A stretch of DNA of 20,120 nucleotides from positions 1 to 20,120 of the forward strand of contig JAQSXU010000058.1 of NCBI GenBank assembly GCA_029256485.1, given 5' to 3'. Of the stretch, positions 5,015 through 20,120 are shown one piece after another. The notes under the pieces are model-generated. The model made no database searches. It was not told the DNA's origin and saw only the letters and a list, made by a program, of their open reading frames with translations. Position 1 is the first letter of the stretch; each line of letters begins with the position of its first letter. This stretch comes from Clostridiaceae bacterium. Lineage in GTDB: Bacteria > Bacillota_A > Clostridia > Clostridiales > Clostridiaceae. Position numbers and translations under genes: made by a program.

Positions 5015-6022
5015 ATGAGAATTACAAATAAAATGCTTTCAAATAATTTTTTAAGTGATTTAAATACAAATTTACAGAATATGCAGACCCTGCAAAAGCA
5101 AATGACATCAGGAAAGTTATTCAGTAAACCATCTGATAATCCTTTTAGCGTATCCAGAGCAATGGAACTACATACAAGTATTAATACAAATACAATGTAC
5201 AATGAAAATATAAAGGATACAATAAATTGGCTGGATACAACTGATAAAGCGGCAGGACAAATTGGAGATGTTTTCCAGAGGGTTAGAGAATTACTTGTAA
5301 ATTCGGGAGATGCGGCTTATAGCCCTGAGGAAAGGCAAAAGATTAAGGATGAAGTAAATCAAGATGTATCTCAGCTTTCTCAGATTTTAAACACCAGTTT
5401 TGATGGAAAATATGTTTTTGGTGGAACCAGAGGCACGTCCAAGCCAACAGATGCAGTTACAAATGCAACAACTGGTAATACTGACTTAGTTTATGTAAAT
5501 AAGGATGGAACAACATTAGATCCCGTTGTAACACCAACGGCAGCACAGTATACCATGATTAAAACCAGCCTTCAAGTTGAAGTTTCTCAAGGTGTTACCA
5601 TGAAATACAATGTTAGCGCCAATGAGATAATGCAATATGGCAGTGATCCATCAACTGATGACATAAGATTATTGCTCCAGAGAATAACAAATCATCTTGA
5701 TGGGAATAATGATGCTGGTACTGCTACAGATGCTAATGCCACATCATATCTAACAGGTAAAGATTTAAATGATGTAGATGCAGCTTTGAATAATATACTA
5801 ACAGTTCGCTCTCAAGTAGGCGCAAAACAAAATAGAATGGACAGCGCTCAAACGCAAAATACAGATATGAATGCAAATATGACTGAAATTTTATCTAAAA
5901 CAGAGGATATAGATATAACTCAGAAGACCATGGAGTACGCTACGGCACAAACTGTTTATCTGGCATCACTGCAGACCAGTGCAAAGGTAATACAGCCAAC
6001 CTTAATGGACTACTTGAGATAG
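5015..6022 (+). CDS. flgL: Flagellar hook-associated protein 3 FlgL
   Basis: FlgL is the second junction protein between hook and filament and is homologous to flagellin at both ends. The N-terminus begins MRITNKMLSNNFLSDLN and continues through LQKQMTSGKLFSKPSDNPFS (about 28-47), the flagellin-like D0/D1 helix with the SDNPxxxxRAM pattern. The C-terminus has the long amphipathic helix (AQTVYLASLQTSAKVIQPTL, about 313-332) ending in DYLR. At 335 residues it is of normal length. The ATG at 5015 follows flgK by 17 bases, with AAGGA and GGTG upstream. It would be exported with the FlgN chaperone. Confidence 0.95.
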   Translation: MRITNKMLSNNFLSDLNTNLQNMQTLQKQMTSGKLFSKPSDNPFSVSRAMELHTSINTNTMYNENIKDTINWLDTTDKAAGQIGDVFQRVRELLVNSGDAAYSPEERQKIKDEVNQDVSQLSQILNTSFDGKYVFGGTRGTSKPTDAVTNATTGNTDLVYVNKDGTTLDPVVTPTAAQYTMIKTSLQVEVSQGVTMKYNVSANEIMQYGSDPSTDDIRLLLQRITNHLDGNNDAGTATDANATSYLTGKDLNDVDAALNNILTVRSQVGAKQNRMDSAQTQNTDMNANMTEILSKTEDIDITQKTMEYATAQTVYLASLQTSAKVIQPTLMDYLR

Positions 6023-6038
6023 TTAAGAGGTGAAAGTA

Positions 6039-6470
6039 ATGAAACTAAATACAAAATATCATGGCATTAAAAATTATGAGGAAAATGACATAATTACATT
6101 TGAAAAGGGAATCCCGGGATTTGACAATTTTAAAAAATTTATTTTGTTTGACGTGGAGAATAATGATGTATTTAAAGTACTTCACTCCATAGAGAATAAT
6201 GAAATAGGTTTCCTAGTGGTTTCACCTTTTGATGTGGATAAAAGTTATGAGTTCAATATAGATGATGATACAATATATTACCTTAAAATTAAAGAACCAT
6301 CAGATGCAATGGTTCTAAGTACAGTAACATTAAATTCAAAAGTAAAGGATATTACTATTAATTTAAAAGCACCAATAATAATAAATTTCCATGAAAAATT
6401 AGGACAACAGATAATACTTGACAATGAGAAATATGAAGTAAAACATAAACTTATTAATAATAGCCAGTAA
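6039..6470 (+). CDS. fliW: Flagellar assembly factor FliW
   Basis: FliW is a small cytoplasmic beta-barrel protein that binds either flagellin or CsrA. When flagellin is exported, free FliW binds CsrA and relieves its block on flagellin translation. Recognisable family features are ITFEKGIPGFDNFKKFIL at about 20-37 and the C-terminal IINFHEKLGQQIILDNEKY. I chose the ATG at 6039 (143 residues) rather than a GTG at 6030, because AAGAGG at 6025-6030 is the ribosome binding site and would overlap the earlier start. It is followed by csrA after 72 bases, the usual partner pair. Confidence 0.95.
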   Translation: MKLNTKYHGIKNYEENDIITFEKGIPGFDNFKKFILFDVENNDVFKVLHSIENNEIGFLVVSPFDVDKSYEFNIDDDTIYYLKIKEPSDAMVLSTVTLNSKVKDITINLKAPIIINFHEKLGQQIILDNEKYEVKHKLINNSQ

Positions 6471-13572: not shown

Positions 13573-14796
13573 ATGCAAAGAATAATTAAAGCTTTACAAA
13601 CTAAGGAAGAAAATTATACACTAAGTATTGATAATGTATTTTTGCACAGCAAATATTACCCTTTAAAAGAAGCTGAAAAATTCATAGAGAACAATATAAA
13701 CAATATTAAAAATAAAGAGTATATTGTTATTTATGGTATTGGATTAGCATATCACTTAAAAAAATTATTAAATATAGTAGATGAAAATAGCAAGGTTTTT
13801 GCATTTGATGCAGATATAGAAGTGATTAAGAAGAGTGAAGAAGTGGGATTACTAAATGAATTAAAAATGGATAAAAGATTAGAAATATTCTTTGAATATA
13901 ATAAAAATTTTTTTAAAGCACTGTCAGATAAAATGAAATTAGTTGAAGATATTATTGTGTATAAGCCTTCTGTTAGAACATTGCCATCAGAATATGATGA
14001 CTTAATTAATTTACTAAATTCATATGAATTAGCTAAAATAGCTGTGAAGAAATTTGGAAACATTGCAAAGGAGAACTATATAGTAAATTTACAATACAGC
14101 AATAAAAGTATAAAAGATTTTTTCAGAGAAACAAACTTTAGTGATAAACCTATCGTAATAGCTTCTGGAGGACCTTCTTTAGAAAATAACCTGAGAAGCT
14201 TGAGAAAATATAGGGATAACATATATATTTTTGCTCTTGGCAGAACTTTAGATATTTTAATGAAAAATGAAATAAAACCAGATGTAATTATAATAATTGA
14301 TCCGCAAAATTTAGTATTTGAACAGATAAAAGAGTATATAAATTTGGATATCCCACTATGCTATTTAAGTACTGCAAATAGCATGACGGTTAAAAATTAT
14401 ACTGGACCAAAATATATTTTTTTTAATGATTTGGACGAAAAAAACATAGATAATATTGTTATAAGCACTGGGAAATCCGTAGCTGTAGCAGCTATAGATA
14501 TTGCTGTGAAATCAGGTCCAAAACAAATTATTTTTTTAGGTCAGGACTTAGCATATATAAATAATAAATTTCATGCAGGAGATAAGGAAGAAAGAGAGTC
14601 TAATTTAACACCTGGAGGTAACAGAAAAGTGTTGGGTGTAGATGGTAATATGCTTGATACTAATATGGGACTTTTAGAATTCAAAAGAAATATAGAGAAA
14701 ATTATTAATTTAAATCCAAATGTTGAATTTATAAACTGCAGTAAGGGCGCTAAAATAAGGGGAACTAAGGAAAGAGAATTAGAACAGATTTTATAA
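13573..14796 (+). CDS. Maf-type flagellin glycosyltransferase (DUF115), short form
   Basis: This is a second Maf-family protein. The DUF115 motifs are PIVIASGGPSLENN (193-206), IKPDVIIIIDPQ and GQDLAYINNKFHA (323-335), aligning clearly with the first maf protein. At 407 residues it is about 180 shorter: the N-terminal variable region is somewhat reduced, and the protein ends in GAKIRGTKERELEQIL, soon after the point where the long form reads FINSTEGGANMMGTK, so the C-terminal helical region is absent. The stop is followed one base later by a decayed spsF fragment. It may be a natural short Maf that works with the small upstream protein, or a gene shortened by the rearrangement next to it. Confidence 0.85.
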   Translation: MQRIIKALQTKEENYTLSIDNVFLHSKYYPLKEAEKFIENNINNIKNKEYIVIYGIGLAYHLKKLLNIVDENSKVFAFDADIEVIKKSEEVGLLNELKMDKRLEIFFEYNKNFFKALSDKMKLVEDIIVYKPSVRTLPSEYDDLINLLNSYELAKIAVKKFGNIAKENYIVNLQYSNKSIKDFFRETNFSDKPIVIASGGPSLENNLRSLRKYRDNIYIFALGRTLDILMKNEIKPDVIIIIDPQNLVFEQIKEYINLDIPLCYLSTANSMTVKNYTGPKYIFFNDLDEKNIDNIVISTGKSVAVAAIDIAVKSGPKQIIFLGQDLAYINNKFHAGDKEERESNLTPGGNRKVLGVDGNMLDTNMGLLEFKRNIEKIINLNPNVEFINCSKGAKIRGTKERELEQIL

Positions 14797-14797
14797 T

Positions 14798-14941
14798 ATG
14801 AATATAGTTTGCATAATTCAAGCAAGAACCTATTCAACTAGTTTATCTGGAAAGGTTCGAAAAAACATATGTTGCGTAACAGTTTTAGGGCTTGATATTG
14901 GCAGGTGGAAATATAACACAAATTATTTATATAAAATATGA
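14798..14941 (+). pseudogene. 5' remnant of an spsF-like cytidylyltransferase gene
   Basis: A 47-codon frame begins MNIVCIIQARTYSTSLSGKV and continues KNICCVTVLGLDIGR before a TGA. It aligns residue by residue with the N-terminus of the intact SpsF-type protein encoded at 15789 (MKVCTIIQARTGSTRLPKKV). Several positions conserved in the intact copy are altered: Gly12 is Tyr, Arg15 is Ser, Pro17 is Ser and Leu21 is Arg, so the nucleotide-binding loop is probably dead. There is no clear ribosome binding site. The missing 3' part of such a gene appears at 17357. The remaining 105 bases to the next gene hold no clear coding or regulatory signal apart from its ribosome binding site. Confidence 0.8.
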
Positions 14942-15046
14942 TCAGAAAAATTCTAAGCTGGATTTATTTTTTATTCAAAAATCAATGTAAGAATAGTAAT
15001 GTTTTTTAGAATTTTAAATATAGTAATTTAATGGTGAGGCGAAAAA

Positions 15047-15775
15047 ATGAGCGAAAAAACGGTATTAATAACTGGAGGAAGCAAGGGGCTAGGAAGAGCA
15101 GCTGTGGAATACTTTGTAGAAAGTGGATATAATGTTGCGTTTACTTATTTAAATAGCGAAGATCGTGCAAAAGAATTGCATGATGAATATGGTGATTCAG
15201 TTTTACCAATACAAGCAGATGCATCTAATTATGATAGGGCTTTTGAGGTAGTAGAAGAGGTTATGAAAATGTATGGTAAAATAGACACTATTATTAACAA
15301 TGTTGCTTTAGCAAAAGACAAGCCAATATGGGAGATTGATAAATCAAAATGGGATTTTACAATAAATAATGCATTAAACCCCTGTTTCAATTATACTAGA
15401 GCGGTTGTTAATGAATTTATTAAAAATAGGAGCGGTAAGATTATTAACATTGGATCCATAAATGGTATGAGAGGTAGAGAGGGTAGTGTTGGCTACTGTA
15501 CAGCAAAGGCTGGTATAATAGGATTTACTAAAACAATTGCAAAAGAGCTAGGAGAATTTAATATAACTGCCAATGTTATAGCACCAGGATATATAGACAC
15601 TGATGGGCAAGCAAATACTAGCCAGTTAATAAAGAACTTAGTACTAGATGAATGCGCTATAAGAAGACTTACTAAGCCAATTGAAATTGTTTATTTAATA
15701 GAGTTTTTGGCTAGTTATAAAGGTGATAATATTACAGGGCAGGTTTATCAAGTAGATTGTGGACAATACATATGA
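15047..15775 (+). CDS. Short-chain dehydrogenase/reductase (SDR)
   Basis: A classical SDR of 242 residues, FabG-like in layout. It has the dinucleotide-binding motif TGGSKGLG at 9-16, NNVA at 84-87 (usual form NNAG), and the catalytic set Ser137, Tyr150 and Lys154 in GSVGYCTAKAG. The C-terminus contains NVIAPGYIDTD and ends TGQVYQVDCGQYI, the usual SDR finish. The substrate cannot be read from the sequence. Its position next to an spsF-like cytidylyltransferase and an aldo/keto reductase suggests oxidation or reduction of a sugar, comparable in context to PtmA in Campylobacter flagellin glycosylation. ATG at 15047 has GTGAGG at 15034-15039. The next gene starts 13 bases after the stop. Confidence 0.9.
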   Translation: MSEKTVLITGGSKGLGRAAVEYFVESGYNVAFTYLNSEDRAKELHDEYGDSVLPIQADASNYDRAFEVVEEVMKMYGKIDTIINNVALAKDKPIWEIDKSKWDFTINNALNPCFNYTRAVVNEFIKNRSGKIINIGSINGMRGREGSVGYCTAKAGIIGFTKTIAKELGEFNITANVIAPGYIDTDGQANTSQLIKNLVLDECAIRRLTKPIEIVYLIEFLASYKGDNITGQVYQVDCGQYI

Positions 15776-15788
15776 AAGAAGGAAAATT

Positions 15789-16463
15789 ATGAAAGTTTGC
15801 ACAATAATCCAGGCCAGAACTGGTTCAACAAGATTACCTAAAAAAGTGTTAAGACCAATATGCGGAATTCCTATTTTAATTCATGATATAAATAGAATCA
15901 AAAAAAGTAAATTAATTGATAAAATTATTATAGCTACAACTGACAATAAAAATGATGATGCTATAGTAAATTTATTGAAAAAAGTTGATGTAGGTATTTT
16001 TAGAGGAAATGAAGAGGATGTTTTGGATAGATATTATAAAGCTGCAAAAGAATACAATGCAGACATAATAGTTAGAATTACAAGTGATAATCCACTAATG
16101 GATTATAGAGTAGTGGATGGTATTATTGAAAATTTAATCAATGAAAAAACTGATTATAGCTGTAATAATATGCCTAGAACATTTCCTTATGGTATGGATT
16201 GTGAATGCTTTACATTTAAAGTCTTGCAGGAAGCATGGGAAAATGCTAAAGAACCATATGAAAGGGAACATGTTACACCATACATAAGAAATAATAAATT
16301 TTATAAAAAGTCTAATTTGTTAAATAGTAGAGATTTATCAAACTTGAGATTTACTGTAGATACCATAGATGATTTTAAATATGTAGAAAAAATTTATGAG
16401 AACTTATATTTCAATTATAATGATTTTACTACAGAGGATATTTTGAATTATCTAAATATATAA
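15789..16463 (+). CDS. SpsF-type cytidylyltransferase (intact copy)
   Basis: This belongs to the SpsF / CMP-sugar synthetase family, which activates acidic sugars with CTP (cytoplasmic). The nucleotide-binding loop IIQARTGSTRLPKKVL lies at 6-21, followed by IIIATTDN (46-53), FRGNEEDVLDRY (71-82), the metal-binding region VRITSDNPLMD (95-105), REHVTPYI (159-166) and LRFTVDTIDDF (186-196). At 224 residues it looks complete. I chose the ATG at 15789, with AAGGA at 15779-15783, over one at 15759 inside the SDR gene. Two fragments of a second spsF-like gene lie on each side of the cassette containing this gene. It could activate pseudaminic acid or a different sugar; the sequence does not decide. 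Confidence 0.88.
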   Translation: MKVCTIIQARTGSTRLPKKVLRPICGIPILIHDINRIKKSKLIDKIIIATTDNKNDDAIVNLLKKVDVGIFRGNEEDVLDRYYKAAKEYNADIIVRITSDNPLMDYRVVDGIIENLINEKTDYSCNNMPRTFPYGMDCECFTFKVLQEAWENAKEPYEREHVTPYIRNNKFYKKSNLLNSRDLSNLRFTVDTIDDFKYVEKIYENLYFNYNDFTTEDILNYLNI

Positions 16464-16481
16464 TAGAGATGGTGATGGAGT

Positions 16482-17366
16482 ATGCAGTCTTTAGGTTTAG
16501 GAACAGTTCAGCTTGGAATGAAATATGGTATTGCAAATAAATGTGATAAGCCGACAGCGGATGAATCTTTTGAAATATTAAATTTAGCATATTTGAGTAA
16601 TATAAGATTACTAGATACTGCTTCAGCTTATGGTGATTCGGAGGAGATTATTGGAAGATATATAGCCAAAACAAGCAATGTATTTTCAATTTCCTCAAAG
16701 TTACCTAAAATGGATGATTATGATTGTTCTTATAGAAAGATAAAGGAATATGTATTGAAATCAATAGAAAAATTAAATGTAAATTATATTGAAAAATATT
16801 TTTTACATGATTTCAATATGTTACTAAAGAATCCTAAAATATTTTCTTATTTAAAACGATTAATGGATGATAATTTAGTAAAAGAAATTGGCATTTCAAT
16901 TTATACACCTCAAGAATTAGAGCTGATTTTAAAAAAATTTAATGCAATTGATATTGTTCAAATACCATTTAATGTTTTCGATCAAAGATGGAATGATGAT
17001 TTATTAGCAAGAACAAAAGAAAATAATATTAAAATAATTGCAAGAAGTGTTTATTTACAGGGATTGTTTTTCGCAGATAAAAATAAGGCTTATGGAATTC
17101 ACAAAAATGCCGTTAAATATATAGATGAAATGACACAATTTTGCAAAGACAATAATTTAAGTATTAGTGAGTTTGCACTAAAATATGTTACTGAACAGGA
17201 TTATATTGACTATATTATTATTGGTGCTGAGAATAAGAAGCAACTTCTTAAAAATGTAGAACTATATAATAAAATTAAGAAATCAGGAAGTAAAGATATT
17301 ACCTCATTTGCAAAAGAAAATTTTAAAAATATTGAAACAAAAATAATTGATCCTAGGTTGTGGTAG
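16482..17366 (+). CDS. Aldo/keto reductase family protein
   Basis: A 294-residue aldo/keto reductase. The N-terminus SLGLGTVQLGMKYGIANK is the beta-strand pattern typical of the subgroup found in surface-sugar loci. The catalytic tetrad can be assigned as Asp45 and Tyr50 (LLDTASAYGDSEE), Lys73 (SSKLPK) and His109 (YFLHDF). Cofactor-loop elements follow (IARSVYLQGLF, IIIGAENKKQL). It probably reduces or oxidises a sugar intermediate in the same pathway as the SDR two genes upstream, but the substrate is unknown. The ATG at 16482 follows the spsF-like gene by 18 bases. It is strikingly AT-rich (hand count 11 GC in 60 at 16801-16860). Its stop codon lies inside the spsF 3' remnant, exactly where composition changes. 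Confidence 0.88.
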   Translation: MQSLGLGTVQLGMKYGIANKCDKPTADESFEILNLAYLSNIRLLDTASAYGDSEEIIGRYIAKTSNVFSISSKLPKMDDYDCSYRKIKEYVLKSIEKLNVNYIEKYFLHDFNMLLKNPKIFSYLKRLMDDNLVKEIGISIYTPQELELILKKFNAIDIVQIPFNVFDQRWNDDLLARTKENNIKIIARSVYLQGLFFADKNKAYGIHKNAVKYIDEMTQFCKDNNLSISEFALKYVTEQDYIDYIIIGAENKKQLLKNVELYNKIKKSGSKDITSFAKENFKNIETKIIDPRLW

Positions 17367-17818
17367 TAAGAGTTACAAGTGATTGTCTGCTTATAGATAG
17401 TGAAGTTACAGAAAAAATAATACAGTACTACATGGACAATAATGATAAATATGACTATGTCAGCAATACTATTGACAGAACCTATCCAATGGGACTGGAC
17501 ACAGAGGTATTTAGCTTTAATTCGCTGCAAAAGGCATTTAATGAGGCATCAAGTATGAGGGACAGGGAACATGTCACTCCGTATATTTGGGACAACCCAC
17601 ATTTATTTACATTGTTTCAATATAAAAATCAAAATGATTATTCAAATTTAAGATGGACATTAGATACCGCAGAGGATTTTGAATTAATAAATAGAGTATA
17701 TGGTTTCTTATATGCAGCTAAAGGTAACAATTTTAATATTAGTGATATTGTTGAATTATATAGTTCACATCCAGAACTTATTGATATAAATAAGGACATT
17801 GAACAGAAAAAAGCTTAA
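17357..17818 (+). pseudogene. 3' remnant of an spsF-like cytidylyltransferase gene
   Basis: About 153 codons align with residues 92 to the end of SpsF-type enzymes: VVVRVTSDCLLID, then DRTYPMGLDTEVF, REHVTPYIWDN and NLRWTLDTAEDF, with a family-like tail HPELIDINKDIEQKK. The first 90 residues, which hold the CTP-binding loop, are missing, so the product cannot be active. Frame is closed by TAG at 17354-17356; the only near start is GTG at 17360, without a ribosome binding site. In SDCLLID the Pro found in the intact copy (SDNPLMD) is Leu. Composition (24 GC in 60 at 17461-17520) matches the pse genes downstream rather than the cassette upstream. With the piece at 14798 it probably represents one ancestral gene lacking about 45 codons. 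Confidence 0.85.
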
Positions 17819-17831
17819 AGGGTGGTTAAAA

Positions 17832-18272
17832 ATGTGTTTTCATCTAAAAAAAGCAGCTGCTGAGCATTGCGATTTATTATTCAAATGGACAAATGATAAA
17901 GAAGTAAGAGAAAATTCCTTTACCAAGGATGTTATAAAGTATGATGAACATGTAAAGTGGTTCTATGATAAATTAAATTCTCCTAATTGTAAAATTTTTA
18001 TATTTTATTTGGACAATGTGCCTGTAGGACAAGTAAGAATTGATGTGGAAAATCATGAAGCTGTAATCAGCTATAGTTTAGATAATAACTTTAGAGGAAA
18101 GGGATTATCAGCAGAAATGATTGGCTTGCTTGAGAAAAATGCTGATACTAATGTAAATAAATTAATAGGCTATGTAAAATTCAGTAATGTTATTTCACAA
18201 AGAGTTTTTGAAAAATTAGGATACACTAAGGAACTAAATAATAACTGCATTAAATATAGTAAAATAATTTAG
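17832..18272 (+). CDS. GNAT family N-acetyltransferase, probably PseH-like
   Basis: A 146-residue GNAT acetyltransferase. The N-terminus has LLFKWTNDKEVRENSF (about 15-30), a pattern seen in sugar N-acetyltransferases of this group. The acetyl-CoA loop is NNFRGKGLS (85-93), and VKFSNVISQRVFEKLGY is the typical motif B near the C-terminus. Standing directly before pseI, it most likely acetylates the 4-amino group of the UDP-altrosamine intermediate in pseudaminic acid synthesis (the PseH step), but SpsD-like roles are possible. I chose the ATG at 17832, with AAAGGGTGG at 17817-17825, over a TTG at 17799. It starts 13 bases after the spsF remnant. Confidence 0.85.
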   Translation: MCFHLKKAAAEHCDLLFKWTNDKEVRENSFTKDVIKYDEHVKWFYDKLNSPNCKIFIFYLDNVPVGQVRIDVENHEAVISYSLDNNFRGKGLSAEMIGLLEKNADTNVNKLIGYVKFSNVISQRVFEKLGYTKELNNNCIKYSKII

Positions 18273-19472: not shown

Positions 19473-20120
19473 ATGAGTAAAGAACTAGCTATTAATGGTG
19501 GAACACCAGTTAGAGATACATATTTATCCTATGGAAGACAATGCATAGATGATAATGATATAGAAGCAGTTACAAAGATTTTAAAGGGAGACTTTTTAAC
19601 TACAGGACCAAGTGTAAAAGCCTTTGAAGATAAGGTAGCTGAATATGTAGGTGCAAAGTATGCTGTAGCGGTTAGTAATGGTACAGCTGCACTGCATGCA
19701 GCTTGTTTTGCAGCAGGAATAAAAGAGGGAGATGAAGTAATAGTAACTCCTATTACTTTTGCTGCATCAAGCAACTGTGTTTTGTACTGCGGAGGAAAGC
19801 CGGTTTTTGTGGATGTTGACCCTAAAACATATAATATTGATGTGAATAAAATTGAAGAGAAGATAACAGAAAAGACAAAAGCTATAATTCCAGTAGATTT
19901 TACAGGACAAGTGGTGGATATTGATAGAATAAATGAAATTGCAAAAAAATACAATTTGACTGTAATTGAAGATGCAGCACATGCTCTTGGAAGTGAATAT
20001 AAGGGTAAAAAAGTAGGAACACTTTCACACATGACAGAGTTCAGCTTCCATCCTGTAAAGCCTATTACAACTGCTGAAGGCGGAATGGTGGTTACTGACG
20101 ATGAAAAGTTATATAAAAGA
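19473..20120 (+). CDS. pseC: UDP-4-amino-4,6-dideoxy-N-acetyl-beta-L-altrosamine transaminase PseC (partial)
   Basis: A PLP-dependent sugar aminotransferase of the DegT/DnrJ/EryC1 family, cut by the window end after 216 codons (families run to about 380). PseC aminates the 4-keto sugar made by PseB in pseudaminic acid synthesis. Visible features are LAINGGTPVRDTYLSYGRQ (5-23), LTTGPSVKAFE, VAVSNGTAALHAA with the phosphate-binding Thr/Ala turn, VIVTPITFAASSNCVLYCGG, VIEDAAHALGSEYKGKKVG with the cofactor Asp, and the PLP lysine at about 196 in FHPVKPITTAEGGM. ATG at 19473 follows an AAGGAG at 19457-19462. It is set off from pseI by a terminator and 130 bases, so it has its own promoter. Confidence 0.93.
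   Translation, partial: MSKELAINGGTPVRDTYLSYGRQCIDDNDIEAVTKILKGDFLTTGPSVKAFEDKVAEYVGAKYAVAVSNGTAALHAACFAAGIKEGDEVIVTPITFAASSNCVLYCGGKPVFVDVDPKTYNIDVNKIEEKITEKTKAIIPVDFTGQVVDIDRINEIAKKYNLTVIEDAAHALGSEYKGKKVGTLSHMTEFSFHPVKPITTAEGGMVVTDDEKLYKR

What the first reader, a model, noticed from the sequence alone, without database searches (positions are those of the whole stretch)
14798..17818. One spsF-like gene split into two decayed pieces around an intact SDR-spsF-AKR cassette
Seen: a 47-codon N-terminal piece (14798-14941) and a C-terminal piece (17357-17818) of an SpsF-type cytidylyltransferase flank three intact genes, one of which is a second, complete SpsF. Together the pieces cover roughly residues 1-47 and 92-end, lacking about 45 codons, and both carry changes at conserved positions. 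Without the cassette, the order would be maf, spsF, pseH-like, pseI, a sensible pseudaminic acid operon. Inference: recombination replaced the middle of the resident cytidylyltransferase with a sugar-modification cassette, swapping or altering the flagellar glycan. I see no transposase, terminal inverted repeats or convincing target duplication, so homologous or illegitimate recombination is more likely than transposition.
Basis: partly seen in the sequence, partly recalled or inferred. Interest (0 to 1): 0.78.

Follow-up and report, generated by a model that had tools for sequence, protein, structure and literature searches.

The report
Flagellar sugar gene swapped by cassette
In this Clostridium-like flagellar operon the gene that activates the flagellar sugar is a broken relic, and between its two remnants sits an intact three-gene module of the kind that makes an altered form of that sugar in another bacterium, so the flagellum probably wears a changed sugar.

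Summary
Window 14798-14941 and 17360-17818 are two ends of one clostridial spsF (CMP-sugar synthetase). The C-piece is 90-93% identical to intact 244-aa orthologs; the N-piece matches 26 of 38 residues. In L120 (probably C. omnivorum) an uninterrupted spsF follows the same short maf. Between the pieces lie intact SDR, SpsF' and aldo-keto reductase (AKR) genes, a real module: the order recurs in two other genomes, and the three SpsF' form one clade (100/99). In G928 it holds the only spsF-type gene found (E<=1e-20), in a pseudaminic acid (Pse) operon. Its domain families are those of Acinetobacter EpaB (SDR) and EpaA (SpsF-AKR fusion), which convert Pse to 8-epi-Pse (PMC12053666). Best reading: the module took over CMP activation and probably makes an epimerised Pse for flagellin. 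Correction: the pieces did not decay together. The N-piece has 8 of 37 residues unseen in 113 orthologs, the C-piece 2 of 152, suggesting gain of the module before final loss of spsF; in G473 both coexist. The order of events and the sugar are untested; EpaA and EpaB were not compared directly.

The parts
13573..14796 (+). mafS: short Maf-type flagellin glycosyltransferase gene directly upstream of the spsF relic
   Evidence: MptE-like Pfam E=5.9e-46; a 68% identical gene lies directly before intact spsF in L120
14798..14941 (+). N-terminal relic of resident spsF (about codons 1-42)
   Evidence: 26/38 identical to P0002, E=4e-14; 8 of 37 residues unseen in 113 non-redundant ortholog rows
14942..15046 (+). 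AT-rich interval (21% GC) without residual spsF similarity; GGTGAGG before the SDR start looks like a ribosome binding site (recalled motif)
   Evidence: sequence
15047..15775 (+). SDR-family oxidoreductase, 242 aa, intact; cassette gene 1
   Evidence: adh_short E=8.2e-51; 69% identical to the SDRs of L147 and L153; TGxxxGxG, S137, Y150 and K154 shared by the three (their role is recalled)
15789..16463 (+). SpsF' cytidylyltransferase, 224 aa from ATG 15789, intact; cassette gene 2
   Evidence: CTP_transf_3 E=1.3e-37; 51% to resident-type P0002, 62% and 58% to cassette copies in G928 and G473; clade 100/99
16482..17366 (+). Aldo-keto reductase, 294 aa, intact; cassette gene 3; ends IIDPRLW like its relatives; its TAG stop lies within the resident spsF sequence
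   Evidence: Aldo_ket_red E=6e-42; D45, Y50, K73, H109, P291 and W294 invariant in the 22-row alignment, window included (catalytic role recalled); ends of relatives
17357..17368 (+). Right junction: AKR end and stop codon overlap the first spsF codons (GTG GTA GTA); possible microhomology
   Evidence: sequence; orthologs at the same site; inference
17360..17818 (+). C-terminal relic of resident spsF (codons 93-244), open frame of 152 codons overlapping the AKR gene by 7 bases
   Evidence: 90-93% identical to P0001-P0003; P102L and R136M at columns invariant in 127 rows; overlap
17832..18272 (+). pseH-like GNAT acetyltransferase, resident clostridial type
   Evidence: TIGR03585 52.1 bits, below the cut-off of 93.1; 44% to L153, 54% to L122
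18281..19342 (+). pseI, pseudaminic acid synthase
   Evidence: TIGR03586 519.5 bits, cut-off 340.25
19473..20120 (+). 5' part of pseC (aminotransferase), running off the window
   Evidence: translation; 88% to L120 pseC, itself above the PseC cut-off

Best explanation
The operon is a Pse-type flagellar glycosylation locus of a Clostridium-like bacterium. Its original CMP-sugar synthetase, spsF, is dead: N-terminal half eroded, middle missing, C-terminal half left as an open but probably inactive remnant. Its step is taken over by SpsF' of the SDR-SpsF'-AKR module. The module most likely does the job of Acinetobacter EpaB+EpaA: one oxidoreductase oxidises a side-chain hydroxyl (C-8 by analogy), the other reduces the ketone from the other face, and SpsF' makes the CMP donor, so that Maf transfers an epimerised pseudaminic acid to flagellin. 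With spsF gone, all flux would pass through SpsF', unless another synthetase lies elsewhere in the genome. History, inferred: the module arrived first, next to an early relic of the spsF front; spsF was finally lost later, with the AKR end joined to codon 93. Shown: the relics, their unequal decay, intact module genes, the same module in Pse operons of two other genomes and, in one of them, as the only spsF-type gene found. Inferred: order of events, enzyme order, C-8 as the site, product on flagellin.
For: Relics of one spsF and the uninterrupted allele after mafS. Conserved residues of SDR and AKR kept. Same order SDR-SpsF'-AKR in L147 and L153. SpsF' clade of window, L147 and L153 at 100/99, apart from resident SpsF. 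G928: PseC, PseI and PseG above NCBIfam cut-offs, PseB and PseH best matches but below theirs; one spsF-type gene in the genome at E<=1e-20, the cassette one. G473: PseB, PseC, PseG and PseI all above cut-offs, own spsF kept. spsF, AKR and SDR between pseC and pseG-pseH-pseI on a Priestia plasmid. SDR followed by an SpsF-AKR fusion, with a PseI equivalog nearby, on a Marinovum plasmid; the fusion is 31% and 28% identical to window SpsF' and AKR. All 120 listed relatives of that fusion, of 1465 found, carry both Pfam domains. EpaA = CTP_transf_3 + Aldo_ket_red, EpaB = SDR, product 8ePse5Ac7Ac by NMR: PMC12053666, abstract and passages. Unequal decay.
Against: EpaA and EpaB sequences were not reached, so no direct comparison was made; their paper reports no significant identity of EpaA to other A. 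baumannii NulO enzymes. The window SDR is 26% identical to the Marinovum partner SDR, a different SDR branch that may act elsewhere on the sugar. In G928 the AKR has one in-frame stop, so that module may not be whole. The AKR family is not confined to such modules: of 21 AKR loci with flanks of at most about 1.5 kb, 11 had an SDR, 3 an spsF and 1 a neuB-type gene; it also sits beside a class-III aminotransferase and spsF. The two-step history needs either a partial duplication of the spsF front when the module arrived, or later renewal of the C-piece from an intact allele; neither is shown. The window genome is not held, so another intact spsF cannot be excluded; G473 has three spsF-type genes.
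Confidence: 0.55

Rival explanations
1. The module makes a Pse derivative other than the 8-epimer (another epimer, a deoxy or keto form, or a precursor for later amination or acylation); SpsF' still supplies CMP activation.
For: The window SDR is a FabG-like branch, 26% to the partner SDR of an SpsF-AKR fusion; the same AKR family sits beside a class-III aminotransferase in other NulO-type loci, so its substrate need not be fixed.
Against: The domain families match EpaB and EpaA, whose product is known, and SpsF' and AKR follow in the order of the EpaA fusion; no aminotransferase is part of this module.
Confidence: 0.25
2. Single event: one illegitimate insertion split spsF, and both pieces have been drifting since.
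For: No transposon hallmarks found; simplest; needs no duplication; possible microhomology at the right junction.
Against: Decay is unequal: 8/37 against 2/152 unseen residues, Fisher p=4e-5; 10 against 5 private changes, where intact copies have 0-1 and 2-5. Normally the N-terminal part is the better conserved of the two.
Confidence: 0.15
3. The C-piece is kept by selection, for example as a translated spacer coupling AKR to pseH, while the N-piece is free to drift.
For: Frame open over 152 codons, GTG start overlapping the AKR end by 7 bases; substitution count like intact orthologs.
Against: Two residues invariant in 127 rows (P102, R136) are lost; no similarly short homolog is among the 120 listed hits, all at least 211 aa (1163 were found).
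Confidence: 0.12

Closest known systems
EpaA/EpaB, Pse to 8-epi-Pse conversion in Acinetobacter baumannii prophages (PMC12053666; abstract and passages read)
   Same: CTP_transf_3, Aldo_ket_red and SDR families; works on a Pse pathway
   Different: There CTP_transf_3 and AKR are one fused protein, encoded on prophages away from the capsule locus and acting on capsule. Here three separate genes sit in a flagellar operon where the resident synthetase is a relic.
elaABC and aciABCD modules listed in place of lgaG in A. baumannii K loci (PMC9676051; passages read)
   Same: A multi-gene module is listed where the plain CMP-NulO synthetase gene otherwise is, with a different sugar as product (8eLeg, Aci)
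   Different: Lga (legionaminic-type) precursor genes, capsule loci; no relic of the replaced gene mentioned in the passages read
Vibrio B9-25K2 Pse cluster with SpsF-AKR fusion followed by a dehydrogenase (PMC7371886; passages read)
   Same: Same three domain types in a Pse cluster, suggested there to replace the missing NeuA homolog
   Different: Fused; product unknown; no relic of a replaced gene mentioned in the passages read
Hypervariable flagellar glycosylation region of Clostridium (PMC13317340; outline, part 1 of section 18 and passages read)
   Same: Same kind of locus; Pse genes next to maf genes, content varying between strains
   Different: Its main text has no occurrence of 'spsF', 'aldo', 'short-chain', 'reductase', 'dehydrogenase', 'pseudogene' or '8-epi'

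Membership tests
EpaAB-type Pse 8-epimerisation module | Cytidylyltransferase (CTP_transf_3), aldo-keto reductase and SDR domains encoded together | tested here: met
EpaAB-type Pse 8-epimerisation module | CTP_transf_3 and AKR fused in one protein (EpaA) | tested here: not met
   Separate genes 15789-16463 and 16482-17366, in one reading frame but divided by a stop codon
EpaAB-type Pse 8-epimerisation module | Prophage-borne (as in all A. baumannii cases of the paper) | tested here: not met
   Lies inside a flagellar operon; no phage gene recognised among the listed frames of the window (by reading, no phage library was searched)
EpaAB-type Pse 8-epimerisation module | Acts with a Pse pathway | tested here: met
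   Next to a PseI equivalog and a pseC gene; pseB and pseG are not in the window
EpaAB-type Pse 8-epimerisation module | Sequence homology to EpaA and EpaB themselves | tested here: inconclusive
   Searches of phage records and viral contigs brought no such fusion; only a fused homolog from Marinovum was compared
EpaAB-type Pse 8-epimerisation module | Product 8-epi-Pse | not testable with these tools
   needs enzyme assay or NMR
PseF equivalog (TIGR03584) | Score above the family cut-off of 205.7 bits | tested here: not met
   SpsF' 38.9 bits; it is SpsF-type
SpsF-type cytidylyltransferase (PF02348) | Full-length CTP_transf_3 domain | tested here: met
   SpsF' E=1.3e-37, profile 2-214 of 217
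Pseudogene (resident spsF) | Missing segment and changes at highly conserved positions | tested here: met
   about 50 codons absent; of columns at least 95% conserved, 5 of 13 are changed in the N-piece and 2 of 59 in the C-piece
Transposon insertion | Terminal inverted repeats, target duplication or transposase | tested here: inconclusive
   No transposase recognised and no end repeats of 14 bases or more; target duplications shorter than 14 bases were not tested

The most novel reading that the evidence does not exclude
The flagellin of this Clostridium carries 8-epi-pseudaminic acid, or another not yet described epimer, made by an unfused EpaAB-like module that has replaced the resident CMP-Pse synthetase. 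It would be a chromosomal flagellar counterpart of the phage-borne capsule-converting enzymes, with gain-then-loss recorded in the unequal decay of the two relics. The listings show no paper on such a module in a Gram-positive flagellar locus; most listed papers were not opened.
Probability: 0.4. Interest if true: 0.66.

Novelty: new variant of a known kind. Interest (0 to 1): 0.52.

Why it matters
It turns an apparent gene break into a testable rule for reading nonulosonic acid operons: where SDR+SpsF+AKR stands in place of a plain SpsF/PseF, predict an epimerised sugar. It suggests that enzymes known from Acinetobacter prophages have counterparts in flagellar operons of Gram-positive bacteria and on plasmids, and it shows a likely route by which a flagellar surface sugar is switched: a second synthetase arrives, then the first is lost.

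Tried and rejected
Chance similarity of the N-piece: rejected, although Pfam alone is not significant. Decayed spsF codons hidden in 14912-15046: none found. Transposition: no hallmarks found, short target duplications not tested. AKR truncated or extended by the junction: rejected; P291 and W294 are invariant in 22 rows, and close relatives end PRxW with none to three residues after it. pseH imported with the module: not favoured, 54% to a clostridial pseH against 44% to that of L153. Base composition: module 25-34% GC, five other genes 26-36%, not informative. First SpsF' tree was spoiled by five long branches (L156, L155, L126, L149, L125); the second leaves these five out and adds four rows. 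The 127 ortholog rows hold duplicates (loci that are also listed proteins); with rows of 98% or more identity dropped, 113 remain and the counts for the pieces do not change. In that set 67 of 113 intact rows have as many unseen residues in the C-region as the C-piece, so only the position of its changes marks it as damaged. Promoter scan: 48 sites, 34.8 in shuffles, not informative. Searches that led nowhere: genome scan with mafS, plasmids near search, plasmids with the C-piece (27 records, all under 60%), viral contigs with SDR and AKR, phages with AKR and SpsF' (5 and 1 weak records). Viral scan with SpsF-AKR fusions gave two loci: in L157 AKR and SpsF are separate frames; in L158 there is an AKR frame and no SpsF frame of 200 aa or more in the listing. 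Geobacillus and B. subtilis papers PMC5109656 and PMC7439481 have no 'keto reductase' or '8-epi' in their main text (passages only).
Full report
What is there. The right half of the window reads fliC, maf (586 aa), a 115-aa gene, a short maf (mafS, 407 aa), then a 47-codon frame (14798-14941), an SDR gene (15047-15775), an spsF-type gene (SpsF', from ATG 15789), an aldo-keto reductase gene (AKR, 16482-17366), a 152-codon frame (17360-17818), a pseH-like gene, pseI and the start of pseC. PseI exceeds its NCBIfam cut-off (519.5 bits against 340.25); the pseH-like gene is below its cut-off (52.1 against 93.1); SpsF' is far below the PseF equivalog cut-off (38.9 against 205.7) and is SpsF-type.

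The two frames are ends of one gene. The 152-codon frame is 90-93% identical over its full length to three intact 244-aa SpsF proteins (P0001-P0003). The 47-codon frame is insignificant in Pfam (13.2 bits, E=0.077) but matches the N-terminus of P0002 at 26 of 38 residues without gaps, E=4e-14 in that one comparison. The module's own SpsF' is only 51% identical to P0002, so the frames are not pieces of it. In L120, from a genome whose contig length identifies it as Clostridium omnivorum, the order is maf, 115-aa-type gene, two other genes, mafS (68%), intact spsF, a formyltransferase, pseI, pseC, a pseB-like gene and pseG (PseI, PseC and PseG above their cut-offs, PseB best match but below). 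mafS directly before spsF was also seen in L090, L095 and L101, and in L002, where mafS is in pieces.

Unequal decay. The N- and C-pieces were compared, as separate rows, with 127 ortholog rows (119 of the 120 listed proteins, one dropped as shorter than 225 aa, and 8 translated loci). The N-piece has 8 residues in 37 columns not seen in any row, where an intact row has on average 0.25 and at most 2; the C-piece has 2 in 152, where intact rows average 1.8 and reach 9. Some rows are the same protein twice; after dropping rows of at least 98% identity, 113 remain, the piece counts are the same (8 and 2), intact rows average 0.31 (maximum 2) and 2.17 (maximum 9), and 0 of 113 and 67 of 113 reach the value of the piece. 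Fisher's test of 8/37 against 2/152 gives p=4e-5. In a four-way comparison with P0001-P0003 the N-piece has 10 private changes (intact copies 0-1), the C-piece 5 (intact copies 2-5). Of columns at least 95% conserved, 5 of 13 are changed in the N-piece and 2 of 59 in the C-piece; the latter are P102L and R136M, at residues invariant in all 127 rows. Two pieces that lost function on the same day should not look like this. I infer that the N-piece has been free for long and the C-piece only recently, or that the C-piece is under some constraint.

Junctions. Close AKR relatives end in PRxW followed by none to three residues (L126 none, L125 and L147 two, L153 three), and the window AKR ends IIDPRLW and stops, so the AKR looks complete. 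Its last codons and TAG stop overlap the spsF codons GTG GTA GTA, where orthologs have two hydrophobic residues and then VR or IR. That is what a join at a few shared bases would leave; the length of the shared stretch cannot be known without donor DNA. On the left, similarity to spsF fades near codon 38-42, and the following AT-rich bases show no trace of the missing codons. No transposase was recognised and no end repeats of 14 bases or more were found; shorter target duplications were not tested.

The module is real. SDR-SpsF'-AKR occurs in this order in L147 (genome G473; identities 69, 57 and 40% in tblastn) and in L153 (G928; SDR 70%, SpsF' 62%). The three SpsF' proteins form one clade with support 100/99, apart from resident SpsF of Clostridium and others (24 rows; five long-branched rows of the first tree were left out and four others added). 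In G928 the module stands directly upstream of pseH-pseI, as in the window, and downstream of pseC. There PseC, PseI and PseG exceed NCBIfam cut-offs, while PseB and PseH are best matches below theirs. The module's SpsF' is the only spsF-type gene found in that genome at E<=1e-20, though the AKR there is interrupted by one in-frame stop. In G473 the module follows a Pse operon with PseB, PseC, PseG and PseI above their cut-offs that keeps its own spsF: a state in which both coexist. The module is rare. Close relatives of the SDR were found in 2 of 398 genomes drawn from the phylum (E<=1e-60); of the AKR in 2 of 206 of the family (E<=1e-25) and 19 of 391 of the class (E<=1e-35). The highest identity of any listed AKR in the protein database, other than the window's own, is 48%.

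What it does. EpaA of Acinetobacter baumannii prophages is a fusion of CTP_transf_3 and Aldo_ket_red, EpaB is an SDR, and together they turn Pse5Ac7Ac into 8ePse5Ac7Ac, shown by NMR in a complemented strain (PMC12053666, abstract and passages read). The window module has these three families, with SpsF' and AKR adjacent in the order of the fusion and, as it happens, in one reading frame. A bridge is seen on a Marinovum plasmid: SDR, then an SpsF-AKR fusion, with a PseI equivalog nearby; window SpsF' and AKR match its two halves at 31% and 28%. All 120 listed relatives of that fusion, of 1465 found, carry both domains. On a Priestia plasmid spsF, AKR and SDR lie between pseC and pseG-pseH-pseI. 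A Vibrio Pse cluster with such a fusion and a dehydrogenase was noted in 2020, its product unknown (PMC7371886, passages read). In A. baumannii K loci the modules elaABC and aciABCD are listed where lgaG otherwise stands, with 8-epilegionaminic or acinetaminic acid as predicted sugar (PMC9676051, passages read). I therefore predict CMP-8-epi-Pse as the most likely donor. The two-oxidoreductase logic (oxidise, re-reduce from the other face) is inference.

History. The favoured order is: module gained, spsF finally lost later. Since the front of spsF cannot decay upstream while the gene works downstream, this needs either a partial copy of the spsF front left when the module arrived, or a later renewal of the C-piece from an intact allele. 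Neither is shown; the single-event model needs no such step but does not explain the unequal decay.

Limits. EpaA/EpaB sequences could not be reached, so likeness rests on domain set, order and pathway, not on direct alignment. The window SDR differs from the Marinovum partner SDR (26%). The AKR family also occurs outside such modules: of 21 AKR loci, 11 had an SDR, 3 an spsF and 1 a neuB-type gene within flanks of at most about 1.5 kb. The window genome is not held. The listings show no paper describing such a module in a Gram-positive flagellar locus; of the papers listed there, passages of PMC12053666, PMC7371886, PMC9676051 and PMC7439481 were read and the rest were not opened. The main text of the 2026 survey of Clostridium flagellar loci has no occurrence of 'aldo', 'short-chain', 'reductase', 'pseudogene' or '8-epi' (PMC13317340); supplementary files were not seen.

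Verdict. It is a new variant of a known kind of system.

Noticed in passing
L125:9889-11270 (G100, probably C. magnum): Only a C-terminal part of pseI (residues 198-349) matches here, followed by the most similar listed relative of the window AKR (48%), then pseB- and pseG-like genes (by reading); a second AKR at 5821-6467 looks decayed. Another scarred Pse locus with this AKR.
   Followed up: partly
L126:6187-11793 (G090): pseI is broken into several frames; beside it, on the other strand, AKR-SDR-spsF-GNAT form a differently ordered module, and a second pseI with an open frame lies at 15782-16849.
   Followed up: partly
L127:821-10548 (G006, C. bovifaecis): About 9 kb with a large repeat protein, an IS66-family transposase (Pfam E=4.7e-86) and a PseB/LegB-like gene (by reading) separate mafS from spsF; spsF itself is out of frame.
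   Followed up: partly
L149:8191-13485, L150:9323-13454, L157:4761-8325: Same AKR family next to a class-III aminotransferase and spsF, with a neuB-type gene in L149 and L150 (by reading), in L157 on a viral contig: perhaps a related module that aminates rather than epimerises.
   Followed up: partly
L148:1782-10562 (G225): AKR and a 49% identical SDR sit near DHDPS-family and amidohydrolase-family genes and a GntR-like regulator (by reading): perhaps a sugar-acid breakdown operon, so the SDR-AKR pair may also serve degradation.
   Followed up: no
L153:11277-12182 (G928): The AKR of the best matching module has one in-frame stop codon; sequencing error or real loss not decided.
   Followed up: no
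window 15789-17366: SpsF' and AKR genes are in the same reading frame, 18 bases apart after the stop, in the order of the natural SpsF-AKR fusions; one chance in three by itself.
   Followed up: partly
L097, L099, L100, L111: spsF lies in an open frame of 395-399 codons, longer than spsF alone; not examined.
   Followed up: no
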